From: Rhizobiaceae bacterium
Lineage (GTDB): Bacteria > Pseudomonadota > Alphaproteobacteria > Rhizobiales > Rhizobiaceae
Direction of reading: 5' to 3'
NCBI GenBank assembly: GCA_019635775.1
Contig: JAHBYU010000012.1
Span: forward strand, 1 to 64,000
DNA: 64,000 nt
Shown piece after piece: positions 40,882 through 55,829 of this stretch. The notes beneath the pieces were generated by a model that saw nothing but the letters and a program-made list of their open reading frames with translations, searched no databases and was not told the DNA's origin. Numbering within the stretch: the first letter of the stretch is position 1; every line of letters begins with the position of its first letter. A program made the translations under genes and the position numbers.

Positions 40882-43035
40882 ATGGCCGAGCGGTCATTCG
40901 CCAAGGAAGTGGAGAAGCTGAGGCTGGGTGACGGCGAGGAATTCGCCGGCGAAGGCATCCTCGCCATCACCAAGGCCTTGCTGCAATGCGGCGTGGGCTA
41001 TGTCGGCGGCTATCAGGGCGCGCCGATCAGCCACCTGATGGACGTGCTGGCCGACGCGCAGGACATTCTGGGCGAACTCGGCGTGCATTTCGAAGCGTCT
41101 GCATCCGAAGCGACCGCCACCGCGATGCTGGCGGCATCGGTGCATTACCCGATCCGCGGCGCGGCGACGTTCAAGTCCACCGTCGGCACCAACGTGGCCT
41201 CCGACGCGCTCGCCAACCTTGCGTCCGGTGGTGTGACCGGCGGGGCACTCATCATCGTGGGCGAGGACTATGGGGAAGGCTCCTCGATCATGCAGGAGCG
41301 CAGCCACGCCTTCGCGATGAAGAGCCAGGTCTGGCTGCTCGATCCGCGCCCGAACCTGCCTTCCATCGTGAAGGCCGTCGAAGACGGTTTCGAGCTTTCG
41401 GAAGTCTCCAACACGCCCGTCATGCTGCAGGTGCGCATCCGCTGCTGCCACGTGCACGGCAAGTTCATCGCCAAGGACAACAAACGCCCTGCGATGACGG
41501 TGGCCGACGCGCTGGACAATCCCCGCCGCGATACCGGCCGTATCGTTCTGCCGCCAGCGTCCTTCCTGCATGAGAAGGAGAAGGTGGCGAAACGCTGGCC
41601 GGCCGCGGTCGACTTTATCCGCAACAACAACATCAACGAGTTCTTCGGGCCCGGCGCCGGTTCGGTAGGCATCGTCATGCAAGGCGGTATGTACAATGCC
41701 GTGATCCGGGCGTTGCAGCGCCTTGGGCTTGCCGACGCCTATGGCGAGACGGACGTGCCGCTTTATGTGCTGAACGCGGTCTACCCCCTCATCGACGACG
41801 AATTCCTGGAGTTCTGCGAGGGCAAGGATTCGGTTCTCGTGGTTGAGGAAGGCCAGCCCAACTATATCGAGCAGGCTTTTGCCGCCATGCTGCACAAGGC
41901 CGGGCGTGGAACGCGGCTGGTCGGCAAGGAGTATCTCCCGGTCGCCGGCGAATACACCGGGCAGGTGATGCTGGACGGGCTTGGGGCTTTCCTGCGTACC
42001 GAAGCGCCACAGCTTCTTTCGGCCGAAATTCGCGCTCCGAACAAGTCCGGCGAAGGCGAGGAAATACCCGACCTGAGCAAGGTCGTACCGGGCCGCCCGC
42101 CGGGCTTCTGTATCGGCTGTCCGGAACGGCCGATCTTCGCCGCGACCAAGCTTGTCGAGCAGGAACTCGGCAAGCACCACATCGCGTCCGACATCGGCTG
42201 CCACCTGTTCTCGATCATGCCGCCCTTCGAGCTTGGCGCGACAACGATGGGTTACGGCCTCGGGCCTGCCTCCGCTTCCGCCTTCAATTCGCCCGAAGCG
42301 AAACGGCGCTCCATCTCGTTCGTTGGCGACGGCGGTTTCTGGCACAACGGCCTGACGTCTTCCGTCGGCAACGCCGTCTTCAACAGGAATGACGGCGTGA
42401 TCGTGATCGTCGACAATTTCTATTCGGCGGCGACCGGCGGGCAGGACATCCTGTCGTCACGTGCGAACAACCGGACGAAATCGACGCAGCACCCGATTAC
42501 CAAGGCGGTCGAGGGGATGGGCGTGAAATGGCTGCGCCATATCGACCGGACCTATGATGTCGGAAAGGTGCAGGCGACGCTGAAGGAGGCGCTGACGACC
42601 GAGGAGGGCGGACCGAAGGTCATCGTCGCCTCTTCGGAATGCATGCTCAACCGTCAGCGCCGCGAACGTCCGCTGGTCAACCAGGCAATCAAGGACGGCG
42701 CGCGCGTCGTGAAGCCCAAATTCGGCGTGGACGAAGACATCTGCACGGGCGACCACGCCTGCATGCGGCTGTCCGGTTGCCCGTCGCTGTCGGTAAAGTC
42801 CCTGGACGATCCGCTGCGAGACGATCCGGTGGCGAGCATCGACCAGAATTGCGTCGGCTGCGGCAACTGCGGCGAGGTGGCGGATGCTGCCGTGCTCTGC
42901 CCATCCTTCTATCGTGCCGACGTCGTCCACAATCCGAGCGGTTGGGATCGCTTCATGGACAGGATGCGCAGCGGCGTGATCGGTTTCCTCCAGCGCCGAC
43001 GCGAAGGCCGCCGGCTGGTCTTCGCCGATGCTTGA
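40882..43035 (+). CDS. Indolepyruvate:ferredoxin oxidoreductase alpha-like subunit
   Basis: This 717-residue ThDP/Fe-S protein is of the IorA type. The N-terminal pyrimidine-binding domain (GVGYVGGYQGAPISHLMDVL) is followed by VNTAVYPL-like and ACIGCPERP-like segments (FCIGCPERPIFAATKLVE) and the ThDP motif VGDGGFWHNGLTSSVGNAVFNRNDGVIVIVDN. A C-terminal ferredoxin domain has a second cluster CVGCGNCGEVADAAVLCP and an irregular first cysteine set (CTGDHACMRLSGCPS). Such enzymes oxidatively decarboxylate aryl 2-oxoacids to acyl-CoA. With the preceding hydrolase, indolepyruvate or isatinate are candidate substrates. It overlaps the next gene by 8 bases. Confidence 0.88.
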   Translation: MAERSFAKEVEKLRLGDGEEFAGEGILAITKALLQCGVGYVGGYQGAPISHLMDVLADAQDILGELGVHFEASASEATATAMLAASVHYPIRGAATFKSTVGTNVASDALANLASGGVTGGALIIVGEDYGEGSSIMQERSHAFAMKSQVWLLDPRPNLPSIVKAVEDGFELSEVSNTPVMLQVRIRCCHVHGKFIAKDNKRPAMTVADALDNPRRDTGRIVLPPASFLHEKEKVAKRWPAAVDFIRNNNINEFFGPGAGSVGIVMQGGMYNAVIRALQRLGLADAYGETDVPLYVLNAVYPLIDDEFLEFCEGKDSVLVVEEGQPNYIEQAFAAMLHKAGRGTRLVGKEYLPVAGEYTGQVMLDGLGAFLRTEAPQLLSAEIRAPNKSGEGEEIPDLSKVVPGRPPGFCIGCPERPIFAATKLVEQELGKHHIASDIGCHLFSIMPPFELGATTMGYGLGPASASAFNSPEAKRRSISFVGDGGFWHNGLTSSVGNAVFNRNDGVIVIVDNFYSAATGGQDILSSRANNRTKSTQHPITKAVEGMGVKWLRHIDRTYDVGKVQATLKEALTTEEGGPKVIVASSECMLNRQRRERPLVNQAIKDGARVVKPKFGVDEDICTGDHACMRLSGCPSLSVKSLDDPLRDDPVASIDQNCVGCGNCGEVADAAVLCPSFYRADVVHNPSGWDRFMDRMRSGVIGFLQRRREGRRLVFADA

Positions 43036-44653
43036 TGCAGTCTCGAGGTCCGGCACGCGGCAGAACGCCGGCGACGGCGGCATGATCAAGATCGCCGTCC
43101 TTGCCGTTGGCGGGCAGGGCGGTGGCGTGCTTTCCGACTGGATTGTCGATGTCGCCGAACGCAACGGCTATCTTGCGCAGTCCACTTCGGTTGCTGGCGT
43201 GGCCCAGCGGACCGGCGCTACGATCTATTATATCGAGATGTGCCCCGACAAAGGCAGGCTGCCGGTCTTTGCCCTTTCGCCATCGCAGGGCGATGTAGAC
43301 GTGCTGGTCGCAGCGGAACTGATGGAGGCAGGCCGCGCCATCATGCGCGGCTTCGTGACGCCGGAGAAGACGACACTCATCGCCTCGTCGCACCGCATCG
43401 CCGCCGTATCCGAGAAGATCGAGCCGGGCGATGGACGGGCATCATCCGCAAAGGTGCGGGAGACGGCCGAACTTGCCTCGAAGCGTTTCATAGCCTTCGA
43501 CATGGAGAAGATTGCTGTGCAGGCCGGCTCGGTGGTTTCGGCCAGCCTGTTCGGCGCATTGGCCGGCTCCGGGGTGCTTCCCTTCCCGCGCGAAAGCTAT
43601 GAAGCGACAATCAATGCGTCCGGTCGCGGCGTCAAGGCGAGCCTTGCGGCTTTCACTGGCGGTTATGAGGGTGCTCGCGGCCACAAGGTCCACATTGCAC
43701 GCGCCGTCGAGCCGGGTGGACCCGATGATCAGGCTGCGGTGCATAGCACGGTCACTTCCGCGACGGCCGCCGAGAATGCGGCTCCGGTCGAAGACAAGAC
43801 TGCCGAGGTAGAAGGCCCGCGTCGGCTTGTCGCCGGCTGGCAGGAACTTGTGTCGCGCATCGAGGAACTGCCCGTGCTGGTCCGCGACATGACGATGCGC
43901 GGGCTGCGCAAGGTCGTGGACTATCAGGACACGCGCTACGGCGCCGAATATCTCGATCGCCTGGACCGGGTGGTTGCGCTGGATACGGAGGGGCAGGACT
44001 ACGCGCTGTCCATCGCGGCGGCCAAGCATCTCGCCAACGCGCTTTGCTATGACGACATGATTCGCGTCGCCGACCTCAAGACACGCTCGACGCGCGCTGC
44101 GCGCGTTCGCCGGGAGGTTGGCGTGAAGGGTGACACGATCCTGCAGACCACCGAATATTTCCATCCGCGAGTCGAGGAATTCTGCGGTGCGATGCCGGCG
44201 GCCATCGGCGCTTACATCGAGAACCGCCCGAAGCTTGCCGCTTTCATCGACCGCCGCATCAACAAGGGTCGCCGCATCCGCACCGACAGCTTTTCGGGCT
44301 TTGCCATGCTCTGGCTGATTGGCGGCATGCGCCGCTTCCGGCGCGGGCTGCTGCGACACCGGGTCGAGCAGAAGCATCTCGACCGCTGGTACGATCTGGC
44401 GCTGGAAACCGTGCCGCGGGACTATGCGCTGGCAGTGGAAATTGTAAACACGCGCCGCCTGATCAAGGGCTACAGCGACACCCACGTCCGCGCGCAGTCC
44501 AAGTTCGACCGCGTACTGTCTGCCCTGCCGATGCTGAAGGGCCGGCCAGATGCCGCCGACTGGCTCCGTCGCTTGCGCGAGGCAGCGCTCAAGGACGAAA
44601 AAGGCGACATGCTCGACGGCGCGCTGAAGACAGTGGCAACGCTGGGCGAGTAG
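43028..44653 (+). CDS. Indolepyruvate oxidoreductase beta-like subunit with C-terminal extension
   Basis: This 541-residue protein starts with a gamma-type 2-oxoacid oxidoreductase domain (MIKIAVLAVGGQGGGVLSDWIVDVAE and TSVAGVAQRTGATIYYIEM; about residues 19-205), as in IorB. It continues with a roughly 300-residue helical extension (RIEELPVLVRDMTMRGLRKVVDYQD through LRRLREAALKDEKGD) found in the long beta-family proteins that pair with IorA-like partners. The start is either ATG 43028 (8-base overlap) or 43082, where the conserved part begins. The extension's role is unknown. Confidence 0.85.
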   Translation: MLDAVSRSGTRQNAGDGGMIKIAVLAVGGQGGGVLSDWIVDVAERNGYLAQSTSVAGVAQRTGATIYYIEMCPDKGRLPVFALSPSQGDVDVLVAAELMEAGRAIMRGFVTPEKTTLIASSHRIAAVSEKIEPGDGRASSAKVRETAELASKRFIAFDMEKIAVQAGSVVSASLFGALAGSGVLPFPRESYEATINASGRGVKASLAAFTGGYEGARGHKVHIARAVEPGGPDDQAAVHSTVTSATAAENAAPVEDKTAEVEGPRRLVAGWQELVSRIEELPVLVRDMTMRGLRKVVDYQDTRYGAEYLDRLDRVVALDTEGQDYALSIAAAKHLANALCYDDMIRVADLKTRSTRAARVRREVGVKGDTILQTTEYFHPRVEEFCGAMPAAIGAYIENRPKLAAFIDRRINKGRRIRTDSFSGFAMLWLIGGMRRFRRGLLRHRVEQKHLDRWYDLALETVPRDYALAVEIVNTRRLIKGYSDTHVRAQSKFDRVLSALPMLKGRPDAADWLRRLREAALKDEKGDMLDGALKTVATLGE

Positions 44654-44668: not shown

Positions 44669-44700
44669 ATTGACTTTTGTCAGCAGTCGTGACTATTGTC
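44669..44700. promoter_or_regulatory. Two operator-like half-sites before the SorC regulator gene
   Basis: ATTGACTTTTGTC (44669-44681) and CGTGACTATTGTC (44688-44700) match the arm ATTGACAATTGCC of the palindrome at 51522-51550 in 10 and 9 of 13 positions. They are 19 bases apart, in the same orientation, directly upstream of the regulator start, suggesting autoregulation. Confidence 0.5.
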
Positions 44701-44704
44701 GATC

Positions 44705-45670
44705 ATGGCAATCCGACCGGCAGACCAGATCATCCACAAGGCTGCGTGGCTCTATTATGCGCACGGCCTGAGGCAGGATCAGGTCGCGCAGCAGCTTAAC
44801 ATTTCGCGTGCGTCCGTCGCCATGTATCTCCGCAAGGCGCGGGATACCGGCATCGTCAACATTTCGACCTCAACCCAGCTTTTCACCGACGACGTGACGG
44901 CGCGCGAGATCGAGGATGCCTACGGGCTCGATGCTGTCTGGATCGCGCCACATGGAGAGCATGTCGATCCGGCGGCGGAAGTGCCAGTGCTGGCGGCCGG
45001 CGTATTCCTCGAACTGGTGAAGAAGGGCGACAGGATCGGCGTCGCCTGGGGCCAGACGGTCTATGCTATCGCCGATGTCATGGCCTACGCCGATTTGCAG
45101 GACGTCACCGTCGTTCAGCTTTGCGGCAATCTCGGTGCGCCGTTCGCCTACCGCCCCGACCAGTGCACGATGGAGATCGCGCGGCGGCTGAACGCCAAGG
45201 GTCTCAATTTCTATGCGCCCCTGGTGTTGTCTACCGAAGAACTGGCCAAGCAGCTTCGCGACGAGCCAGTCATCCGAGAACAGCTTGCAGGCATCTCGGA
45301 TTGCGACCTCGCCCTCTATTCGGTAGGCACAGTTGATTCCGAAAGCCACGTCGTCAAATGCGGCGCGCTGACGCCAGCTGAGATGGATGCTTTGCGCAGG
45401 GAAGGCGCCGCTGGCGTCATCGCCGGCCAGATCATCGACGCCAAGGGCGACTTGCTCGACTGCAGCTACAATCGCCGCGCCATCTCGGCCGATCTGGATT
45501 CGCTGCGCGCCATCCCAAAGCGCCTTGTCGTTGTGCAGGAGCCCAACAAGTTCGAGCCGCTGCTGGCCGGCCTGGCTGGCGGCCTCTGCACGCATCTGGT
45601 CATCAACTCGGCAATGGCCACGCGCCTGCTCGCCCATGCCAAGCTGGATGAACGGCGCAAGGCATCCTGA
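44705..45670 (+). CDS. SorC/DeoR-type sugar-responsive transcriptional regulator
   Basis: This 321-residue protein has an N-terminal helix-turn-helix (AAWLYYAHGLRQDQVAQQLNISRASVAMYLRKARDTGIV) and a C-terminal phosphosugar-binding domain (GDRIGVAWGQTVYAI, VTVVQLCGNLG, ALYSVGTVD, AAGVIAGQIIDAKGD). ATG 44705 is preferred to TTG 44696. It precedes the aldolase-dehydrogenase fusion and is near the transporter and mtnKA genes. SorC proteins bind sugar phosphates; methylthioribulose-1-phosphate or deoxyribulose-1-phosphate would be natural effectors here. Confidence 0.88.
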   Translation: MAIRPADQIIHKAAWLYYAHGLRQDQVAQQLNISRASVAMYLRKARDTGIVNISTSTQLFTDDVTAREIEDAYGLDAVWIAPHGEHVDPAAEVPVLAAGVFLELVKKGDRIGVAWGQTVYAIADVMAYADLQDVTVVQLCGNLGAPFAYRPDQCTMEIARRLNAKGLNFYAPLVLSTEELAKQLRDEPVIREQLAGISDCDLALYSVGTVDSESHVVKCGALTPAEMDALRREGAAGVIAGQIIDAKGDLLDCSYNRRAISADLDSLRAIPKRLVVVQEPNKFEPLLAGLAGGLCTHLVINSAMATRLLAHAKLDERRKAS

Positions 45671-45741
45671 TACCTGCGACCTGTCATCCGCCTGTCGCCA
45701 AAACCAATCAAACGCAAACTTCGAAAACCTGGGAATAAACG

Positions 45742-47796
45742 ATGAAGAACCTCTGGAACGACGCCGAAGCGGAAAAGCTGGTGGAGCACTACGCCGCGAA
45801 AGGCATCGGCCGTGAGCTGGCGCTTCGCGTCTACACGACGCGCCTGCTGGGCGGCGATCCGCGCCTCGTGCTGCATGGCGGTGGCAACACGTCGGTCAAG
45901 TCGAAGGCTGTTGATCTTGTCGGCGACGAATGGGACGTGCTGTGCGTCAAGGGCAGCGGCTGGGACATGGGCGTGATCGAGCCGCAGGGCCTGCCGGCGG
46001 TGAAGCTCGGCGCGTTGCTGAAGGCACGCAAGCTGGACAGGCTGTCGGATGAGGACATGGTGGCACTGCAGCGTGCCAACCTCATCGATCCGTCCTCGCC
46101 CAACCCGTCGGTCGAAACGCTGCTCCATGCCTTCCTGCCGCATAAGTTTGTTGACCACACCCATTCGACCGCGATTCTCGGCCTTGTCGACCAGGAAAAC
46201 AGCGAGGAGATCTGCCGCGAGGTCTATGGCAAGACCTTCGGCTTCGTGCCCTACATCATGCCAGGCTTCGACCTCGCCAAGGCGGCGGCTGAAGTGTTCG
46301 AGCAGGATACGTCGGTCATAGGCCTGATCCTCGACAAGCACGGCATATTCACCTTTGGCGAGACCGCCGAGGAAGCCTACACGCGCATGATCGACGCAGT
46401 GACCAAGGCTGAAGACTACATCGCCAAGGGCAAGAAGCCTGCCGCGCCGAAAGCCGCGCTCCCTGCCAATCTCGCAAAGCCAGCCGAGATCGCACCGATG
46501 CTGCGAGGCGCGGTGGCCGTCGACAAGGGCGAAGGGCACTTCGATCGCATGATCAGCGACTTCCGGGTTTCCGACGCGATCCTCGATTTCCTCTCGTCTT
46601 CGAAACTGGGTGAGCTTGCGGCAAGCGGCGTATCCACGCCCGATCTCTCGATCCGCATCAAGACCGGCCCGATGGCGCTGCCCGCGCCGGAAGCCGGCAA
46701 GCTAGGCGACTACAGCAAGGTCGTGAAGGAGCATGTCGCGCAGTTCGCCATGGACTATCGCGCCTATTTCGAGACGAACGACGCTGCCGACGACGTCAAG
46801 CGCACCATGCTCGACCAGATGCCGCGCCTCAGCCTCGTGCCGGGAGTCGGCATGTTCGGTCATGGCCGTACGCTGAAGGATGCGAAGATCGCCTCCGATG
46901 TTGGCGAGATGTGGATCGAGGCGGTGAAGGGTGCAGAAGCGATCGGCACTTTCAAGCCGCTTTCAAAAGCGGATCTCTTCCCGCTCGAATACTGGTCGCT
47001 CGAGCAGGCCAAGCTCGCCTCCAACAAGCCCAAGCCACTGACTGGTCAGGTCATGCTGGTGACAGGCGGTGCAGGCGCGATCGGCGCCGCGACAGCAAAA
47101 CTCTTCGCCGACTACGGTGCGCATGTCGTGGTGGTCGATCTCGACGCCGACAAGGCGGCTGAGTCCGCGAAGAAGGCCGGCAACGCCTCCATCGGCGTCG
47201 GCGCGGACGTGACCGATCCCGCGTCGGTTCGCGCGGCTTTCGACAAGGCCGTGGCGGTTTTTGGTGGCGTGGACATCCTCGTCTCCAACGCTGGTGCTGC
47301 CTGGGAAGGCAAGATCGGCGAGATCGACGACGCACTTCTGCGCAAGAGCTTCGAACTGAATTTCTTCGCCCACCAGACGGCGGCGCAGAACGCGGTGCGC
47401 ATCATGCGCGAGCAGGGCACGGGCGGCGCGCTCCTGTTCAACGCCTCGAAGCAGGCTGTGAACCCCGGAGCGAAATTCGGCGCCTACGGCCTGCCCAAGG
47501 CGGCGACGCTGTTCCTTTCGCGCCAGTACGCGCTCGAATACGGCCCGGATGGCATCCGCTCCAATGCGGTCAACGCCGACCGCATCCGTTCCGGCCTGCT
47601 CACCGACAGCATGATCGCCAACCGCTCGGGCGCGCGCGGCGTGTCCGAAAAGGAATACATGTCCGGAAACCTGCTCGGGCAGGAGGTCACCGCCTTCGAC
47701 GTGGCTCAGGCCTTCCTGCACCACGCGCTGGCCGAGCGCACCACGGCCGATGTCACCACGGTAGACGGCGGCAACATCGCGGCAGCGCTACGGTAG
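45742..47796 (+). CDS. Class II aldolase / short-chain dehydrogenase fusion
   Basis: This 684-residue protein has an N-terminal class II aldolase domain (about 1-420; GGGNTSVKSKAVDLVG, zinc histidines in HTHSTAILGLVDQENSEE and LDKHGIFTFG). Its C-terminal SDR domain (about 430-684) has VMLVTGGAGAIGAATAKLF, ILVSNAGAAWEG and catalytic YGLPKA. The family is usually labelled rhamnulose-1-phosphate aldolase/dehydrogenase. The neighbours mtnK and mtnA instead suggest cleavage of 5-methylthioribulose-1-phosphate or 5-deoxyribulose-1-phosphate to DHAP and an aldehyde, which the SDR domain could oxidise or reduce. A terminator follows the stop. Confidence 0.88.
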   Translation: MKNLWNDAEAEKLVEHYAAKGIGRELALRVYTTRLLGGDPRLVLHGGGNTSVKSKAVDLVGDEWDVLCVKGSGWDMGVIEPQGLPAVKLGALLKARKLDRLSDEDMVALQRANLIDPSSPNPSVETLLHAFLPHKFVDHTHSTAILGLVDQENSEEICREVYGKTFGFVPYIMPGFDLAKAAAEVFEQDTSVIGLILDKHGIFTFGETAEEAYTRMIDAVTKAEDYIAKGKKPAAPKAALPANLAKPAEIAPMLRGAVAVDKGEGHFDRMISDFRVSDAILDFLSSSKLGELAASGVSTPDLSIRIKTGPMALPAPEAGKLGDYSKVVKEHVAQFAMDYRAYFETNDAADDVKRTMLDQMPRLSLVPGVGMFGHGRTLKDAKIASDVGEMWIEAVKGAEAIGTFKPLSKADLFPLEYWSLEQAKLASNKPKPLTGQVMLVTGGAGAIGAATAKLFADYGAHVVVVDLDADKAAESAKKAGNASIGVGADVTDPASVRAAFDKAVAVFGGVDILVSNAGAAWEGKIGEIDDALLRKSFELNFFAHQTAAQNAVRIMREQGTGGALLFNASKQAVNPGAKFGAYGLPKAATLFLSRQYALEYGPDGIRSNAVNADRIRSGLLTDSMIANRSGARGVSEKEYMSGNLLGQEVTAFDVAQAFLHHALAERTTADVTTVDGGNIAAALR

Positions 47797-47824
47797 TCGC
47801 AGGGTCAAGGCAACTAACAAAAAA

Positions 47825-47846
47825 GGGCGCCGTGAGGCGCCCTTTT
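47825..47846. terminator. Bidirectional rho-independent terminator
   Basis: GGGCGCC-GTGA-GGCGCCC is a perfect 7-bp stem with a 4-base loop, followed by TTTT on the plus strand and preceded by a run of A, so it also works on the minus strand. It separates the convergent aldolase-fusion and binding-protein genes. Confidence 0.92.
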
Positions 47847-47868
47847 CTTCAAGCAGAAAAAGCCGAAG

Positions 47869-48921
47869 TCACTTGCCTGGCAGTGCGATCCACGGCGAGA
47901 TGGCGACATCGGCATGGGCGAACTGCGGCAGCTTGGCCGAAAGCTCTTCCATGTTCTTGATGTCGTTGTCGTTGAGGTCCTTCTGCGTGATCAGCGTCGG
48001 CGGGATGATGACCGACTTGCCGACTTCTTCGCCGGCGAGAAGCTGAGCGAGCGCGCGGACGGAAACCTGCCCGACGACGGCCGGGTTGGTGGCGGCAGTG
48101 GCAACCCACGCGGAGCCGGGCTCGCGCATTGCTGCGATGTCCGAGGTCGAGATGTCGGCGGAATAGATCTTGATGTCCGACGACAGGCCGGCCTCGTCGA
48201 CCGCGATCTTCACGCCCTTGGCGAACTCGTCATACGGAGCGAACATGACCTGGATGCCGGGGTTGGCTGTCAGCACGGACCGCGCCTGGTTGGCGACCGA
48301 GTTGGCGATGGGATTGTCGAGCGTGCCGAACATGGCGACTTCCTCGATGCCCGGATACTTGGCCTTGAACTCCCTCCAGGTCTCGTCGCGACGGTCGAGC
48401 GGCGCAATACCGGCGACGTAAACGTAGCCGGCCTTCCAATCTTCTCCGTTGTCCTTGACCGCCTGCTCGAGAGCCAGCCTTGCGAGGTCTCGGTCGGACT
48501 GTTCGATCTGCGGGATCTTGTCGTTTTCGACATTCACGTCGAAGGCGACAACCTTGATGCCGGCGTCAACGGCGCGCTGTGCCGCTTCCTTCATCGATTC
48601 GGTCAGGCCGTGCTGGATGATGATGCCGTCGACACCGAGCGCGATCGCCTGGTCGACCATGTCAGCCTGGAGGGCTGCATCCTGACGGCTGTCCAGGACG
48701 CGAAGATCGACGCCAAGCGCCTTGGCCTGGGCTTCCACGCCGGACAGATAGGCCTGGAAGAAGTCGCCGGTCGACAGATAGCGTACCAGCGCGATCTTCA
48801 CGTCGCCCGGATTGTCGAAGGGGGCCGGCTTGTCCTGCGCCATTGCGGACGCCTGCATGAGGCAGGTCGCGGCAGCCAGGCCTACTGCCAGCTTGCCCAG
48901 AGTTCTACGCGTAAAGTTCAT
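47869..48921 (-). CDS. Ribose-type ABC sugar-binding protein (RbsB-like)
   Basis: This 350-residue precursor has a signal peptide (MNFTRRTLGKLAVGLAAATCLMQASAMA) and a periplasmic-binding type I fold: VKIALVRYLSTGDFFQAYLSGVEAQAKALGV, IALGVDGIIIQHG, GIKVVAFDVNVEN and SADISTSDIAAM. GTGGAGGAAAAC precedes ATG 48921. It is the last gene of a minus-strand ATPase-permease order seen in reverse (ATPase first at 51488). Ligand expected to be a pentose such as methylthioribose or deoxyribose given mtnK and mtnA on the divergent strand. Confidence 0.9.
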   Translation of the reverse strand: MNFTRRTLGKLAVGLAAATCLMQASAMAQDKPAPFDNPGDVKIALVRYLSTGDFFQAYLSGVEAQAKALGVDLRVLDSRQDAALQADMVDQAIALGVDGIIIQHGLTESMKEAAQRAVDAGIKVVAFDVNVENDKIPQIEQSDRDLARLALEQAVKDNGEDWKAGYVYVAGIAPLDRRDETWREFKAKYPGIEEVAMFGTLDNPIANSVANQARSVLTANPGIQVMFAPYDEFAKGVKIAVDEAGLSSDIKIYSADISTSDIAAMREPGSAWVATAATNPAVVGQVSVRALAQLLAGEEVGKSVIIPPTLITQKDLNDNDIKNMEELSAKLPQFAHADVAISPWIALPGK

Positions 48922-48955
48922 GTTTTCCTCCACTCGATGTTGGTCGGTTGCGTTG

Positions 48956-49951
48956 TTACGTTCTGCCCTTGTTGGAAAGGGCAAAGGTGAAGACGAGGGC
49001 CACGACCAGGACCGCCCCCTTCACGAAATCCTGCGTATAGTAGGGTGCGTTCATCATGGTCAGGCCCTGCAGAAGGATGCCGACGAACAGCGCCCCTACC
49101 GCTGTGCCGAACGCGTTGGGCTTGGCCGCGCCAAGGACCGCAAAGCCGATGAGCGCCGCCGCAACGGAATCCAGCAACAGATTGTTACCCGATGCGATGT
49201 CGCCCCGTCCAAGCCGGGCGGCCAGCAAAATGCCGCCGATTGAGGCAAAAACTCCAGAAATCACATAGGCCCAGATTTTATATGCCTTGACGGGCGCGCC
49301 GGCGAGTTCGGCCGCCTTCGGATTGCTTCCGACGGCGTACATCATTCGTCCGAAGCGCGTATATTCGAGGAAGAACCAGATCAGCACCGCGAGAACGAGA
49401 AGCACGACCACCGAAACCGGGATCAGGTTCGGCAGGAAGAAGTCGAAGCGATGGCGGCCCAGCGCAAGGAAGCCAGCGGAAAATGTGCCGTTCGCCGTTG
49501 AGCCATCCGGCAGCGTCATGCCCGTCGCGATCGAGCGGCCCTCGGTAGGAATTCGCTGAAGGCCCACGAGCAGGAACATCATGCCAAGCGTCGCCAGCAG
49601 GTCCGGCACGCGCATGTAGACTATCAGATAGCCATTGATCAGGCCGACCACGACGCCGATGACAAGGCAGGTAACCACGGCAACGAAGGCATTCTGCTCC
49701 ATGATGACCATAACGTAGGCGGCGGCCATCATCGCCGTCGTGGCGACCGAGCCGATGGAAAGATCGAAGCCGCCGACGACCAGCGTCGCTGTAACGCCCA
49801 GCGCCAGAACTCCGGTAATTGCCACGGACTGGAAAATGAAAACCGCTGCCTGCGGCGATGCGAAGCCATCCGTCGCAAGCGAGAAGAAGATGACCAGCCC
49901 AACAAGCAGGGCGAGGAAGCCGTAGCGGATGGCGAAGTCGCGAAGGGTCAT
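48956..49951 (-). CDS. Ribose-type ABC transporter permease (RbsC-like)
   Basis: This 331-residue membrane protein carries the RbsC patterns VAITGVLALGVTATLVVGGFDLSIGSVA, INGYLIVYMRVPDLLATLGMMFLLVG and FGRMMYAVGSNPKAAELAGAPVKAYK, and ends with VGALFVGILLQGLTMMN. It lies 28 bases after the ATPase gene and 34 before the binding-protein gene. It should form a homodimeric channel. Confidence 0.92.
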   Translation of the reverse strand: MTLRDFAIRYGFLALLVGLVIFFSLATDGFASPQAAVFIFQSVAITGVLALGVTATLVVGGFDLSIGSVATTAMMAAAYVMVIMEQNAFVAVVTCLVIGVVVGLINGYLIVYMRVPDLLATLGMMFLLVGLQRIPTEGRSIATGMTLPDGSTANGTFSAGFLALGRHRFDFFLPNLIPVSVVVLLVLAVLIWFFLEYTRFGRMMYAVGSNPKAAELAGAPVKAYKIWAYVISGVFASIGGILLAARLGRGDIASGNNLLLDSVAAALIGFAVLGAAKPNAFGTAVGALFVGILLQGLTMMNAPYYTQDFVKGAVLVVALVFTFALSNKGRT

Positions 49952-49979
49952 GAGGATGCCTGGGTTTTCTTATTGTCGG

Positions 49980-51488
49980 TCACGCCGCACCCTTCAGATT
50001 CTGCCCGGCTATTTCGGCCAGAAGCCGGTCGATGTCCACGTCGGCATTGCGATGTTCGCCCACGATGGTGTGCTCAGACATGACGAGGATTCGGTCGGCG
50101 GTTTCCAGAGCCTCGTCAAGCTCTGTGACGAAGATGAGCGTGGCGCGGCCCCTAGCGCTTTCGCGCAGCTTGTTGGCGATGTCGCGCCGTGCCGCGATGT
50201 CCACGCCCTGGAAGGGTTCGTCGAGGATGAACAGGCTCGCCGGCTGCGACATCCAGCGCGCGACCATGACCTTCTGCTGGTTGCCGCCTGAAAGCGTGGC
50301 CATGTCGTCGCGCTCGGTTCTGCAGACGATGCCGAGTTCGGAGATGGCCTCGCGCGCAACAGCCCGCTCGGTACGACGGGGCACGACTGAAAGGCGCGAG
50401 ATGCGGTCGAGGAACGGCAGGCTCAGGTTCTCGTAGAGATTGAAGTCCTTGATGATCCCGCTTTCGGCGCGGTCCTTGGCAACAAGGAACACGCCTGCCT
50501 TGATTGCTTCGGCGGTCGATTGCGGCGCATAGGCATTGCCGTTCAAGTTCATCATGCCGCCAAGCGGGGCGCGCACGCCAAACAGGGTTTCGGCAAGCGC
50601 GGTCTTGCCGACGCCCACAAGGCCGGTGATGGCAACGATTTCGCCATCGCCAAGCCCCAGCGAGAAAGGTCTTGCGTGGTCTGCGATGCGAAGGTGCTCG
50701 GCCGAGAAGATCGTATGTGCGCCGTCGCGCGCGGCGATCTCTGCGCGATGTATGGTCTGGCCGAGCATGGCGTTGACCGCACCCTCATAGTCGAGCGGCT
50801 TGCTGTTGAATGTGCCGGTGATGCGCCCGTCTCGCAGGGTGACGATGCGATCGGCAAGCCGCCTGATGTCGGACATGCGGTGCGATATGTAAAGAATGGC
50901 GACACCGCGCTCCCGCAGCCGGTCGACTACCTCGAACAGACGGTTCGCCTCGGCGCTTGAAAGCGATGAGGTCGGCTCGTCCAGGATGAGGACCTTTGGC
51001 TCATGCGCCATGGCGCGTGCGATCGCCACCATCTGCCGGTCGGCCAGCGACAGGGCGCTGATCTCGGCGTTGAGGTCGACTTCGAGGCCCATGCGCGCGG
51101 CGACTTCCCTGGCCTGCCTGCGAACGCTGCGCGGATTGAAGAAAAGCCTTGCGCCGGAGCCGTTGAGGCGGTCGAGCGTCAGGTTGGTCGCCACATCGAG
51201 CGCCACAACCACGCCGTCATTGATGTTCTGGTGGACAGTCACCACTCCAGCGCGGATCGCGTCCGCCGGCGAGGCGGGAGAAAAGTTCTTTCCGTCGAGG
51301 GTTATGGTGCCGCCGTCGCGATCATAGACGCCCGAGACGATACGTACGAGCGTGGACTTGCCGGCGCCGTTGGCACCCATGAGCACGGTGACCTCGCCGG
51401 CGTTAAGCTCAAGGCTTACACCGTCAAGCACCTGTGTCGGCCCAAAGGATTTCCTCAGGTCCGCTATGCGGAACACGGGGTCTGCCAT
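49980..51488 (-). CDS. Ribose-type ABC transporter ATPase (RbsA-like, tandem domains)
   Basis: This 502-residue protein has two ATPase halves. The first has Walker A GANGAGKSTLVRIVSG, signature LSLADRQMVAIARAM and Walker B LILDEPTSSL. The second has the degenerate GLVGVGKTALAETLFG, signature LSGGNQQKVMVARW and LFILDEPFQGVD. Start: GGGAGGA directly precedes ATGATG; ATG 51488 has the better spacing, and the longer reading is rejected because it runs into the palindromic operator at 51522. Confidence 0.92.
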   Translation of the reverse strand: MADPVFRIADLRKSFGPTQVLDGVSLELNAGEVTVLMGANGAGKSTLVRIVSGVYDRDGGTITLDGKNFSPASPADAIRAGVVTVHQNINDGVVVALDVATNLTLDRLNGSGARLFFNPRSVRRQAREVAARMGLEVDLNAEISALSLADRQMVAIARAMAHEPKVLILDEPTSSLSSAEANRLFEVVDRLRERGVAILYISHRMSDIRRLADRIVTLRDGRITGTFNSKPLDYEGAVNAMLGQTIHRAEIAARDGAHTIFSAEHLRIADHARPFSLGLGDGEIVAITGLVGVGKTALAETLFGVRAPLGGMMNLNGNAYAPQSTAEAIKAGVFLVAKDRAESGIIKDFNLYENLSLPFLDRISRLSVVPRRTERAVAREAISELGIVCRTERDDMATLSGGNQQKVMVARWMSQPASLFILDEPFQGVDIAARRDIANKLRESARGRATLIFVTELDEALETADRILVMSEHTIVGEHRNADVDIDRLLAEIAGQNLKGAA

Positions 51489-51521
51489 CATTCCTCCCAG
51501 AGCCACGCTATGAAGTTGCTC

Positions 51522-51550
51522 GGCAATTGTCAATACGATTGACAATTGCC
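51522..51550. promoter_or_regulatory. Perfect 29-bp palindromic operator between transporter and mtnK
   Basis: A 13-bp inverted repeat, GGCAATTGTCAAT at 51522-51534 and ATTGACAATTGCC at 51538-51550, is separated by ACG. It lies midway in the 112-base gap between the divergent ATPase (51488) and mtnK (51601) genes. Similar half-sites lie upstream of the SorC-type regulator gene, so this is most likely its operator, controlling both directions. Confidence 0.8.
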
Positions 51551-51600
51551 AGAACGCTACCTAGTTTCGCCCGAAAAGGAAGACCAAAGGGAGGACTGGG

Positions 51601-52890
51601 ATGAGCGGAGCCGAGGCTTTTCAGGCCCTGACCATCGAGACGCTTCCAGCGCGGCTGGGCGGCATCGACGCCCTGACATCACGCATCGGAACCAATGCCG
51701 CGCAGTGGACGGTGAAGGAAGTCGGCGACGGCAACCTCAATCTCGTCTTCATCGTGACAGGCGACAAGGGCGCCGTCATCGTCAAGCAGGCGCTGCCTTA
51801 TGTGCGTCTGGTCGGCGAAAGCTGGCCCCTGCCGCTTAAGCGTTCGTTCTTCGAATATCACGCGCTGACGCGGCAGGAAGCGCGCGCGGGCGTCGGGACC
51901 GTGCCGGCCATTTTCCATTTCGACGAGGCACAGGCGCTTATCGTCATGGAGTACCTGACGCCGCACGTCATCCTTCGGCATGCGCTGATCGAAGGCCGGC
52001 AGTTGCCGAAGATTGCCAACGATCTCGGCCTGTTCATGGCGCGCACGCTTTTTCGCGGTTCCGACCTTTCGATGAAGGCGAAGGATCGCAAGGCCGACGT
52101 TGGGATATTCGCGGACAATGTCGAACTGTGCGACATCACCGAAAATCTCGTCTTCACGGATCCTTATTACGAGACAGAGCTCAATCGACACACCTCGCCG
52201 CAGCTCGATTCGCTTGTTGCCGAGTTGCGCGCCGACCGGGACCTGAAGGTCGAGGCGCAGAAGCTGAAGCACATGTTCGCCGCGAATGCCGAGACGCTGG
52301 TGCATGGCGACCTGCATTCCGGCTCCATCATGGTGACCCATGACGATACGCGGGTCATCGATCCCGAGTTCGCCTTTTACGGCCCTATCGCCTTCGACGT
52401 GGGCATGCTGATGGCCAATTTCTGGATGTCCTATTTCTCCCAATCTGGTCATGAAGGGGCCGGCCACGAAAAGGGCGGCGACCGGGAGTCTATGCGCCAG
52501 TATCTGCTTGGAGTGATTGTCGAGACGTGGTCGATCTTCCGCAGCGAGTTCAGCCGCCTGTGGCATACGGAACGCAACGGCATGCTCTACGATCGCCGCC
52601 TCTTCGAGGATCGCGGCGATCCTCTCGGGTCGGAGCAGGCGCTGGACCGCTTCATCCATGACATCTGGGTCGACATGCTGGGCTTTGCCGGCGTCGAGAT
52701 CCATCGCCGCATCCTCGGGCTCGCGCACAATGCCGACTTCGAGACCATTGCCGACCAGGATCTGCGCGCCACATGCGAGGCGAAGGCGTTGAAATTCGGG
52801 CGCCATATCTGCGTGAACCGCGAGCGCATCCACAGCTTCGACGAAATCCATGCGCTGGCGGCGCGTATCGAGAAGGGAATTGTCGCGTGA
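51601..52890 (+). CDS. mtnK: S-methyl-5-thioribose kinase
   Basis: This 429-residue kinase has the MtnK hallmarks: [30 protein letters not shown] in the N-lobe, ESWPLPLKR, the catalytic-loop [17 protein letters not shown] and metal-binding [21 protein letters not shown]. It phosphorylates methylthioribose (or a close 5-deoxypentose) at C1 with ATP. GGGAGGACTGGG precedes ATG. The stop overlaps the mtnA GTG start (GTGA). It is divergent from the ribose-type importer, implying import of free methylthioribose rather than only intracellular salvage. Confidence 0.95.
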
Positions 52891-53993
52891 AGGTCGAAGA
52901 TCGCCACTATCGCACCATCTGGCTGAACGAGGACGGCCGCTCCGTCGACATCATCGACCAACGCTGGCTTCCGCACGAGTTTCGCATCGAGACCGTGGGC
53001 ACGGTCGATGGCATAGCCACTGCGATACGCGACATGTGGGTGCGCGGTGCGCCGCTGATTGGCGTCACGGCCGCCTATGGCGTTGCCTTGCAGATGCGCG
53101 AGGATGCGTCGGATGCTGCGCTTGAAAAGGTCTGGCACGAGCTTAACGAGACGCGGCCGACGGCTATCAATTTGCGCTGGGCGCTGAACGAAATGAAGCG
53201 CGTATTGTCGCCGCTACCGGTTTCGGAACGCGCCACCGCTGCCTATCGCCGTGCTGCGGAAATCGCAGACGAGGACGTCGAACTCAACCGCTCGATCGGC
53301 GGTCATGGCCTCGAGGTCATCAAGGCGATTGCAGCGAAAAAGAAGCCCGGCGAGCCGGTCAACATCCTGACCCATTGCAACGCCGGCTGGCTGGCGACCG
53401 TGGACTACGGCACGGCCACCGCCCCAATCTATCTGGCCGTCGAGGCAGGCATTCCGGTTCATGTCTATGTCGACGAGACGCGACCGCGTAATCAGGGGGC
53501 GCAGCTGACGGCGTGGGAGATGGCGGGGCACGGCGTGCCGCACACGTTGGTGGTGGACAACGCGGGCGGGCATCTGATGCAGCACGGCATGGTGGACATG
53601 GTGATCGTCGGGACTGATCGCACCACCGCGAACGGCGATGTCTGCAACAAGATCGGTACCTACCTCAAGGCTCTGGCCGCACATGACAACGGCGTTCCGT
53701 TTTATGTCGGCCTGCCGTCGCCGACCATCGACTGGACAGTGCATGACGGTGTGAAGGAAATACCGATCGAAGAGCGTTCCGCCGACGAGGTGTCATACGT
53801 GCAGGGCAAGACGGCGTCGGGTGAAATCGCGCAGGTTCGCATCTCTCCCGAAAAGACCCCGGGAGCCAACCCTGCCTTCGACGTGACGCCCGCTCGCCTC
53901 GTAACCGGTCTCATCACAGAACGGGGTATCGCGAAAGCATCTCCTGAAGGCCTGAGAGCGCTGTTTCCCGAGAGGGCGAAGAGCGCGGCCTGA
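52887..53993 (+). CDS. mtnA: S-methyl-5-thioribose-1-phosphate isomerase
   Basis: This 368-residue isomerase converts methylthioribose-1-phosphate to methylthioribulose-1-phosphate. Family signatures are [36 protein letters not shown] with the catalytic cysteine, [17 protein letters not shown], and [22 protein letters not shown] with the catalytic aspartate. The start is GTG 52887, overlapping mtnK by four bases; a longer reading is the mtnK shadow. No mtnB, mtnC or mtnD is seen, so the product probably goes to the aldolase at 45742 rather than methionine. Confidence 0.95.
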
Positions 53994-54391: not shown

Positions 54392-54551
54392 GAGGCGCTT
54401 GCTACGGACGAGCGGGAATTTCTGCCATTATTTCGACATGGGGAGCGCGCCAACGCTTGCATAATCAGGCAGCATTCCTTCCTTTTCCCGGTGAAGTGTG
54501 GATGATGCCGCACGACAACTGAATTCCCGCGCCTCACTCAGGAGCCGCCGC

Positions 54552-55829
54552 TTGTTCGTATCTTTTTTCCCGCAACCGAAGCTCTTCTTCACGTCCGCGG
54601 CCGCCTGGAGTCTGGTGCTTGTCCTCGTCTGGTTTTTCGGCGCGGAGCAATGGGGCGCTCTTATCGGACTGCCGCCGGCTGCGCCGGATGCCGCGCCCAT
54701 CATCGGGGTGTCGGTGTTCTGGTCGCCCCCCTTTCTTTGGTTCTACATCTACTTCTTCGCCGGGGTGCTGATCTTCTACGCCTTCTGGAACTGGTACTCG
54801 CCGCACCCTTGGCAGCGCTGGTCGATCCTCGGCTCGGCCCTTATCCTGTTCATCGTCTACTTCCAGGTGCAGGTCTCTGTTGCCGTCAACAACTGGTACG
54901 GTCCCTTCTGGGATTACATTCAGGCGATCCTTTCGAAGACCACCACCAGCACTACCGGAGAATATTACAGTCAGGTTGGCAGCTTTGCCGGTCTGGCGCT
55001 GGTCGGCATGAACGTTGCCGTGCTGAACGCCTTCTTCGTCAGTCACTGGATCTTCCGCTGGCGCAACGCCATGAACGACTACTACATGATGAACTGGAGC
55101 AAACTGCGCCACATCGAGGGAGCCTCGCAGCGTGTCCAGGAAGACACGATGCGCTTCTCGCAGATCATGGAGGGGCTCGGCGTTTCCTTCATCGATTCGA
55201 TCATGACGCTGATAGCCTTCATGCCGGTTCTGATCCGCCTTTCCGCCAACATCACGGAACTGCCCATTGTTGGGGCGATCGCGCATCCGCTTGTCGTGGC
55301 GGCAATTGTCTGGTCGGTGTTCGGGACCATCAGCCTGATCGTCGCCGGATACAAGCTGCCGGGACTTCAGTTCCGCAACCAGCGCGTGGAGGCGGCCTAC
55401 CGCAAGGAACTGGTCTACGGAGAGGATGACGAAACCCGCGCGCAGCCACCGACAGTGAAGGAACTGTTCAGCAATGTGCGCCGCAACTATTTCAGGCTCT
55501 ATTTCCACTACGTGTATTTCAACGTGGTTCGCTACACCTACCTGCAGGCCAACAACATCTTCTCGCTTCTGATCCTTGGACCGTCCATCATCGCCGGCAC
55601 CATCACCCTGGGGCTGATGAACCAGATCAGCTACGCTTTCTCGCAGGTGACGAGCTCCTTCCAGTTTCTCGTAAATTCGTGGTCGACCATCGTCGAGCTG
55701 CTATCCGTCCACAAGCGTCTGCGCGCGTTCGAGGCAACGCTTAGGGGTGAGGAACTGCCCGAAATCGATCGCCGGTATCTCGAACGGGAGAGAGCCGGCG
55801 TGCCTCCGGCGGATCAGCCAGCGTCCTGA
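54552..55829 (+). CDS. bacA: BacA/SbmA-type peptide transporter
   Basis: This 425-residue inner-membrane protein imports proline-rich and other antimicrobial peptides and, in rhizobia, is needed for symbiosis and very-long-chain fatty acid modification. The features fit SbmA/BacA: several membrane segments, [42 protein letters not shown] and [10 protein letters not shown]. The start is assigned to TTG 54552: AGGAG lies seven bases before it and the resulting N-terminus ([13 protein letters not shown]) aligns with SbmA (MFKSFFPKPGTFF). A GTG 18 codons upstream would add an untypical basic leader. Confidence 0.93.

What the first reader, a model, noticed from the sequence alone, without database searches (positions are those of the whole stretch)
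44705..53993. Self-contained uptake and aldol-cleavage module for methylthioribose or 5-deoxyribose
Importer, mtnK, mtnA, class II aldolase-SDR fusion and SorC regulator lie together with no mtnB, mtnC, mtnD. This fits the DHAP-shunt type route (kinase, isomerase, aldolase) known for 5-deoxyribose and methylthioribose. Here it is joined to a ribose-type ABC importer, which implies scavenging of free external sugar, and to an aldolase fused to a dehydrogenase that could deal with the aldehyde product.
Basis: partly seen in the sequence, partly recalled or inferred. Interest (0 to 1): 0.75.

Follow-up and report, generated by a model that had tools for sequence, protein, structure and literature searches.

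The report
Methylthioribose/deoxyribose import and cleavage module
A soil bacterium carries a compact, self-regulated gene set that most likely imports two discarded five-carbon sugars (methylthioribose and 5-deoxyribose) and cuts them into usable pieces with an unusual two-in-one enzyme; it is a new version of a known route rather than a new kind of system.

Summary
Seven genes at 44705-53993 encode a SorC regulator, a class II aldolase-SDR fusion, a ribose-type ABC importer, MtnK and MtnA. Genome searches found no MtnC or MtnD, and none of the five class II aldolase matches is an MtnB.

- The binding protein's closest solved relative is a 5-methylthioribose-binding protein (4ry8, 38-39% identity; ribose-binding proteins about 24%).
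- The fusion is separate from rhamnose RhaEW. It is linked to mtnK-mtnA in the family and to mtnA and/or mtnP in 15 of 20 loci elsewhere in the class.
- In four sister loci with the same importer, a stand-alone Ald2-type aldolase takes its place; none of 55 fetched loci has both.
- A palindrome upstream of sorC and between importer and mtnK occurs nowhere else in the genome (at most 1 mismatch), so this is probably one SorC regulon.

The best model is import, phosphorylation, isomerisation and aldol cleavage to DHAP plus (methylthio)acetaldehyde, which the SDR oxidises. It is a variant of the DHAP shunt. Methylthioribose versus 5-deoxyribose, and oxidation versus reduction, are untested. "External scavenging only" is too strong: the genome also has an MTA/SAH nucleosidase.

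The parts
44677..44698 (.). operator-like palindrome TTGTCA-N7-TGACTATTG just upstream of sorC, overlapping a promoter-like pair TTGACT-18-TATTGT
44705..45670 (+). sorC-type (LsrR/DeoR sugar-binding) transcriptional regulator; 31% identical over 315 aa to the regulator ORF beside the E. coli mtnK-mtnA-aldolase genes
45742..47796 (+). class II aldolase fused to a short-chain dehydrogenase (AldSDR); aldolase residues E125, H139, H141, H200 and SDR residues S569, Y582, K586 present
47825..47842 (.). GC hairpin with flanking A and T runs between the convergent units, probably a two-way terminator
   Evidence: sequence printed; not listed by the scan
47869..48921 (-). periplasmic binding protein, related to methylthioribose-binding TLET_1677 (4ry8)
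48956..49951 (-). ribose-type ABC permease
49980..51491 (-). ribose-type ABC ATPase (start moved from the listed 51545 to the ATG at 51491)
51524..51548 (.). operator-like palindrome CAATTGTCAA-N5-TTGACAATTG between the importer and mtnK
51601..52890 (+). mtnK, S-methyl-5-thioribose kinase
52887..53993 (+). mtnA, S-methyl-5-thioribose-1-phosphate isomerase (GTG start, 4-base overlap with mtnK)

Best explanation
This is a variant DHAP shunt with its own importer. The ABC importer brings in 5-methylthioribose and/or 5-deoxyribose. MtnK phosphorylates it at C1. MtnA turns the 1-phosphate into the ribulose-1-phosphate. The aldolase half of the fusion cleaves that to DHAP and (methylthio)acetaldehyde or acetaldehyde. 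The SDR half, by homology to RhaEW, oxidises the aldehyde with NAD+ to the acid. The SorC protein controls both transcription units from two matching operators and is probably relieved by a phosphorylated intermediate. Free sugar made inside the cell by the MTA/SAH nucleosidase can enter the same route. Shown here: gene content, catalytic residues, conserved linkage, exchange with Ald2, a shared palindrome confined to this locus, and relationship to a methylthioribose-binding protein. Inferred: substrates, direction of the redox step, that SorC binds the palindromes, and its effector.
For: (1) The binding-protein model's top Foldseek matches are three 4ry8 chains, entitled '5-methylthioribose transporter solute binding protein TLET_1677' (38-39% identity, E about 1e-28 to 1e-27). 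The next is 5ulb at 32%; ribose-binding entries are about 23-25% (sequence search, 4ry8 at E 9e-68). (2) The fusion forms a group apart from rha-locus RhaEW (support 100/100). (3) Outside the family, mtnA lies in the same stretch as the fusion in 14 of 20 fetched loci, an MTA phosphorylase in 10 of 20, one or the other in 15 of 20. (4) Among 55 MtnK loci, 36 have the fusion, 6 have an Ald2-type aldolase, none has both and 13 have neither within the fetched stretch. Four of the Ald2 loci keep the orthologous importer. (5) In one search, the palindrome pattern with up to 1 mismatch was found at only two places in 4.95 Mb (three rows, two of them the same palindrome on both strands), with 0 in the reversed control. 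(6) The SorC protein and the regulator ORF beside the E. coli genes align over 315 aa (31%). (7) RhaEW oxidises lactaldehyde with NAD+ and showed no activity with NADH (PMC3870299, passages).
Against: (1) No assay of any enzyme or binding protein of this clade was found or run. (2) The aldolase half is not in the Ald2 clade (no or only marginal BLAST match). (3) Seven of 42 loci with a complete importer have no fusion and no Ald2 within the fetched stretch. Their genomes hold a relative elsewhere, but in three of them only class II aldolases of 50-55% identity, which could be true fuculose aldolases. Sinorhizobium meliloti keeps importer, mtnK and mtnA with no fusion beside them. (4) Exclusion of fusion and Ald2 holds per locus, not per genome: G048, with Ald2 in its locus (L087), has a 50-51% fusion elsewhere. 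(5) L140 and L159 have SorC and the fusion without mtnK, mtnA or importer in the held stretch. (6) The palindrome contains TTGACA hexamers that could be back-to-back -35 boxes; one search used a pattern built from these very sites; of 21 loci with more divergent MtnK (under 62% identity) only 4 have it with at most 2 mismatches. (7) R. palustris makes the alcohol rather than the acid in its Ald2 route (PMC5893883, passages).
Confidence: 0.82

Rival explanations
1. The fusion is a rhamnose RhaEW enzyme (rhamnulose-1-phosphate aldolase/lactaldehyde dehydrogenase) and its place beside mtnK-mtnA is incidental.
For: Same two-domain architecture; TIGR02632 matches nearly the whole protein with 487 bits.
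Against: Below the TIGR02632 cut-off of 567.75. Separate group from the R. leguminosarum rha-locus enzyme. No rhizobial-type rhamnose isomerase found in the genome. Linkage to mtnA or mtnP in 15 of 20 loci outside the family. The Glu at position 125 is Asp in the two rha-type rows shown.
Confidence: 0.04
2. The importer carries ribose or another pentose, and MtnK-MtnA-fusion serve only internal detoxification of 5-deoxyribose and methylthioribose.
For: The importer family is ribose-type. The genome has an MTA/SAH nucleosidase (330 bits, cut-off 152), so free sugars arise inside.
Against: The binding protein is closer to the methylthioribose-binding protein than to any ribose-binding protein in the PDB. 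Importer and mtnK share a divergent promoter region with a palindrome found nowhere else in the genome but upstream of sorC. None of the seven genes is a ribokinase.
Confidence: 0.08
3. The SDR half reduces the aldehyde to the alcohol (ethanol or 2-(methylthio)ethanol), as a putative alcohol dehydrogenase does in the R. palustris and R. rubrum shunts.
For: 2-(Methylthio)ethanol is the in vivo product of the Ald2 route in R. palustris (PMC5893883, passages).
Against: The nearest assayed fusion that I found, RhaEW, uses NAD+ for oxidation and gave no activity with NADH (PMC3870299, passages). An acidic residue (D466) ends the second strand of the SDR, which by recalled SDR rules favours NAD.
Confidence: 0.25
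4. Part of a methionine salvage route that recovers sulfur from methylthioribose, with mtnBCD elsewhere.
For: mtnK and mtnA are also the first steps of methionine salvage.
Against: No MtnD, no MtnC, no MtnB among the class II aldolases; the only RuBisCO-like protein found is closest to OiaX (442 bits, below that model's cut-off of 700).
Confidence: 0.05

Closest known systems
DHAP shunt of extraintestinal E. coli (mtnK, mtnA, ald2, putative permease; regulator MtnR/YjhU; PMC12632272, passages)
   Same: Same kinase (44%) and isomerase (62%), a class II aldolase for the third step, and a related regulator (31% over 315 aa) beside the operon (against the E. coli record L186, whose ORFs lie in the order the paper gives).
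   Different: Here the aldolase is a class II aldolase of another clade fused to an SDR, the transporter is an ABC importer with a binding protein, and the regulator gene lies directly upstream of the aldolase gene on the same strand.
5-deoxyribose salvage cluster (drd; Beaudoin et al. 2018, PMC6079011)
   Same: Kinase, isomerase and aldolase in one cluster; four of the clusters drawn there include putative sugar transporters and exogenous use is suggested (passages).
   Different: Their aldolase is fuculose-aldolase-like; 'short-chain' does not occur in that text and the one 'fusion' is a plant aldolase-phosphatase.
RhaEW of rhamnose catabolism (Rodionova et al. 2013, PMC3870299)
   Same: Class II aldolase fused to an SDR that oxidises the aldehyde product (passages).
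   Different: About 33-35% identical, separate group; said there to be always encoded in rha loci, whereas this clade is mostly encoded with mtnK-mtnA or mtnA/mtnP.
5-methylthioribose transporter binding protein TLET_1677 (PDB 4ry8)
   Same: Best sequence and structure match of the binding protein, 38-39% identity.
   Different: From Thermotoga lettingae; its gene neighbourhood was not examined.
DHAP-ethylene and DHAP-methanethiol shunts of R. rubrum and R. palustris
   Same: MtnA and aldol cleavage of methylthioribulose-1-phosphate.
   Different: Start with MtnP, use Ald2 and a putative separate alcohol dehydrogenase (PMC5893883, passages).

Membership tests
DHAP shunt | MtnK-type kinase (or MtnP) for the 1-phosphate | tested here: met
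   TIGR01767 497 bits, cut-off 275
DHAP shunt | MtnA isomerase | tested here: met
   TIGR00512 435 bits, cut-off 279
DHAP shunt | class II aldolase with metal-binding His and catalytic Glu | tested here: met
   PF00596 78 bits, cut-off 22.2; E125, H139, H141, H200 present (roles recalled from fuculose aldolase)
DHAP shunt | aldolase of the Ald2/DrdA clade | tested here: not met
   E. coli Ald2 gives no BLAST match to the fusion at E 1e-3, L087 Ald2 only 26% over 152 aa
DHAP shunt | downstream methionine salvage genes absent | tested here: met
DHAP shunt | source of free sugar: MTA/SAH nucleosidase in the genome | tested here: met
   TIGR01705 330 bits, cut-off 152.2, contig C15
DHAP shunt | aldol cleavage of 5-deoxyribulose- or 5-methylthioribulose-1-phosphate to DHAP | not testable with these tools
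   needs purified enzyme
RhaEW (rhamnose) | aldolase-SDR fusion | tested here: met
RhaEW (rhamnose) | TIGR02632 score over cut-off | tested here: not met
   487.1 bits, cut-off 567.75
RhaEW (rhamnose) | encoded in a rha locus with rhamnose isomerase and kinase | tested here: not met
   none among the seven genes; no TIGR02629 match in the genome
Methylthioribose ABC importer (TLET_1677 type) | binding protein closest to 4ry8 | tested here: met
Methylthioribose ABC importer (TLET_1677 type) | binds methylthioribose | not testable with these tools
   needs a ligand assay
Universal methionine salvage | MtnB, MtnC and MtnD | tested here: not met
AI-2 (Lsr) uptake | LsrB/LsrR equivalog scores over cut-off, LsrK present | tested here: not met
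   LsrB 30 bits against 384, LsrR 105 against 486; kinase is MtnK

The most novel reading that the evidence does not exclude
The fusion defines an oxidative DHAP shunt that is widespread in Alphaproteobacteria in two formats (mtnP-mtnA-fusion for internal nucleosides; importer-mtnK-mtnA-fusion for outside sugars). A single polypeptide cleaves the ribulose-1-phosphate and at once oxidises the toxic aldehyde to (methylthio)acetate or acetate, making the route irreversible and giving plant-associated bacteria a food source from sugars that neighbours and hosts discard.
Probability: 0.55. Interest if true: 0.62.

Novelty: new variant of a known kind. Interest (0 to 1): 0.5.

Why it matters
It gives a concrete, testable answer to what aerobic Rhizobiales can do with methylthioribose and 5-deoxyribose, products that E. 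coli without the shunt excretes (PMC10986504, passages). It suggests a role for a large annotated-but-unassigned family (PRK08324 'bifunctional aldolase/short-chain dehydrogenase'), and it predicts a product (acid rather than alcohol) that differs from the shunts of R. rubrum and R. palustris. The ABC importer would be a dedicated uptake system for these sugars in root-associated bacteria.

Tried and rejected
Rhamnose catabolism was rejected. Methionine salvage was rejected. AI-2 uptake was considered because a related aldolase without the SDR lies in the S. meliloti lsr locus, and rejected on family scores. A palindrome directly upstream of the fusion or of the binding protein was looked for and not found much above shuffles (at most 2 mismatches in 0 of 106 and 1 of 113), which fits a sorC-fusion operon and an ATPase-permease-binding protein operon. 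The terminator scan did not list the hairpin at 47825-47842, and the region has no more promoter-like sites than its shuffles (2 against a mean of 1.9). The own-genome RuBisCO-like protein was considered as an alternative lower branch and set aside, since it is closest to OiaX, though under that model's cut-off. Ligand pocket: F75, F76, D149, R199, D252 and D277 are shared with 4ry8 in the alignment; that these correspond to RbsB contacts is recalled, not tested.

Literature: eight library searches listed no paper whose title or abstract start describes an aldolase-SDR fusion in a methylthioribose/5-deoxyribose cluster. Beyond listings I saw only passages, from PMC6079011, PMC12632272, PMC6302742, PMC5743806, PMC10986504, PMC5893883 and PMC3870299. 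North et al. 2020 (10.1111/mmi.14459, recalled) is not held and was not seen, so prior description there cannot be excluded.
Full report
Observation. Order: sorC> aldSDR> | <SBP <permease <ATPase | mtnK> mtnA>. The fusion matches NF006192 over its full length (1124.6 bits, cut-off 639) and MtnK and MtnA pass their equivalog cut-offs. mtnK and mtnA overlap by four bases (GTGA). The nearest named record is a Mesorhizobium MAG, 97% identical in the fusion.

Conservation. MtnK over its cut-off occurs in 55 of 151 genomes of the family, the window's own included. I fetched 55 stretches around these genes, the window's own left out, one genome twice; some are cut by contig ends. A complete importer was found in 42 of 55, the fusion in 36 of 55, an Ald2-type aldolase in 6 of 55, both in 0, neither in 13. 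Of the 13 with neither, 7 have the importer. Whole-genome searches found for these seven the fusion elsewhere at 67% or more in four (G019, G121, G068, G086; identities) and, in the other three, no close fusion but a class II aldolase of 50-55% to the Ald2 query (G027, about 12 kb from mtnK; G028; G023). In the best 80 of 524 loci gathered by the fusion itself, 70 carry all seven genes at 50% identity or more. Of the other ten, three lack the importer (L109, L127, L143), five are short (L153, L158, L168, L169, L177) and two full-length ones (L140, L159) show only SorC and the fusion. The two sets overlap in part and their members are related, so these counts are not independent events.

Exchange with Ald2. 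In loci L081, L082, L085 and L087 the orthologous importer and mtnK-mtnA are kept, but a fuculose-type class II aldolase of about 220 aa lies in the mtnK-mtnA run with the regulator: mtnK-mtnA-aldolase-sorC in the first three, mtnK-mtnA-sorC-aldolase in L087. The aldolases of L081 and L085 are 72-79% identical to that of L082, which is 50% identical to the aldolase of the E. coli genes; that of L087 is 42%. This is the strongest argument that the fusion does the same third step. The exclusion is per locus: the genome of L087 (G048) has a 50-51% fusion elsewhere. In L052, L055 and L068, and in L086 at a contig start, where no importer was found, the fusion sits directly upstream of mtnK.

Outside the family. 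The fusion (E at most 1e-130) occurs in 69 of 385 genomes drawn from the class, the own genome included (three first-look candidates per genome were scored). I fetched 20 of the 68 other places, mostly from the top of the list. mtnA lies in the stretch in 14 of 20, MTA phosphorylase in 10 of 20, one or the other in 15 of 20; none has the binding protein, permease or MtnK. Five phosphorylases scanned pass the TIGR01694 cut-off. Five stretches (L264, L265, L269, L279, L282) have neither. The MTA phosphorylase was not found in the 55 family stretches or the 80 fusion loci.

Tree. 64 rows, IQ-TREE: ten rha-type fusions, among them the one in the R. leguminosarum rha locus (the context of the other nine was not examined), are split from the window's group by very long branches with support 100/100. 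The window's own group of 40 rows, and another of 7 rows, come from mtnK-mtnA stretches, or were found elsewhere in genomes with MtnK, except L159, where no mtnK was seen. A small group with one mtnK locus (L041), one locus with a PfkB kinase and other ABC genes (L187) and the G048 copy (L195), and the lsr-locus aldolase (L188) with L201, branch nearby; the order of these groups is unresolved, and L188 and L201 have long branches. So the fusion family has more than one context and the mtn linkage is a property of the main groups.

Chemistry. The aldolase motif residues (GGGNTS, E125, H139, H141, H200) and SDR residues (S569, Y582, K586) are present (their roles are recalled). The Glu is Asp in the two rha-type rows shown there. 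RhaEW oxidises lactaldehyde with NAD+ and gave no activity with NADH in vitro (PMC3870299, passages), which is why I favour oxidation. In R. palustris the Ald2 route yields the alcohol (PMC5893883, passages).

Importer. The binding protein's AlphaFold2 model (20 sequences, mean pLDDT 83.7) matches 4ry8, a 5-methylthioribose transporter binding protein, ahead of the ribose-binding proteins; phmmer agrees. Uptake of methylthioribose by another transporter is known in B. subtilis (MtrA/YfnA, PMC5743806, passages), so import as such is not new.

Regulation. A palindrome CAATTGTCAA-N5-TTGACAATTG lies between ATPase and mtnK and a relative with TGACTATTG lies upstream of sorC. Up to two mismatches to TTGTCA-N7-TGACAA are found upstream of mtnK in 100 of 126 loci, but in only 4 of the 21 with MtnK under 62% identity. 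Upstream of sorC they are found in 70 of 104 loci (regulators under 60% identity dropped; shuffles 0.3%). Upstream of the fusion and of the binding protein the counts look like the shuffles. In the whole genome the longer pattern with up to one mismatch hits only these two places, and the reversed control none; the pattern was built from these sites, so the point is its absence elsewhere. TTGACA can also be read as a -35 box. The sorC promoter-like pair ends five bases before the ATG, so a leaderless message is possible. The E. coli regulator MtnR represses its shunt operon (PMC12632272, passages); L186 has a related regulator ORF at that flank.

Source of substrate. The genome has an MTA/SAH nucleosidase, no MTA phosphorylase over its cut-off among three PNP-family matches, no MtnC or MtnD found and no rhizobial rhamnose isomerase found. 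Internal supply is therefore possible alongside import; the nucleosidase locus does not show the palindrome at up to one mismatch.

Verdict. An established route (DHAP shunt) in a variant not found in the papers I could search: aldolase-SDR fusion, methylthioribose-type ABC importer and SorC gene as one probable regulon. Confidence 0.82 for the route, lower for which of the two sugars matters and for the redox direction.

Noticed in passing
L006:16328-19385, also L183, L184, L185 and ten of 55 family loci: In Shinella and some other relatives the importer-mtnK-mtnA stretch also carries a split transketolase/DXS-like pair and a RuBisCO-like protein whose best solved relative is 3qfw. This suggests a second lower branch from methylthioribulose-1-phosphate (1,3-isomerisation, then a thiamine-dependent cleavage); one library search listed no paper on it.
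   Followed up: partly
L188:8001-9251 (S. meliloti pSymB lsr locus): A class II aldolase 44-45% identical to the aldolase half of the fusion, without the SDR, sits directly after lsrB in the AI-2 uptake locus. It may act on phospho-AI-2.
   Followed up: no
L181:6389-13580 (S. meliloti 1021 pSymB): S. meliloti keeps SorC, importer, mtnK and mtnA in the same order, but the fusion is missing between SorC and the binding protein.
   Followed up: partly
L187:809-10049 (Ensifer adhaerens plasmid): A related fusion (52%) lies with a SorC regulator, a PfkB-type kinase and another ribose-type ABC importer, which looks like a different sugar route.
   Followed up: partly
L140 and L159: SorC and the fusion stand without mtnK, mtnA or importer in a full 22 kb stretch; the rest may lie elsewhere in those genomes.
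   Followed up: no
window 40882-44653: Adjacent pair of indolepyruvate-oxidoreductase-like genes (alpha and beta with DUF6537) directly upstream of sorC, apparently a separate unit.
   Followed up: no
window 54498-55829: SbmA/BacA peptide transporter gene (672 bits, cut-off 492) just downstream of the module.
   Followed up: no
window 44670-44705: The sorC promoter-like pair ends five bases before the ATG, so the message may be leaderless and the palindrome covers the promoter.
   Followed up: no
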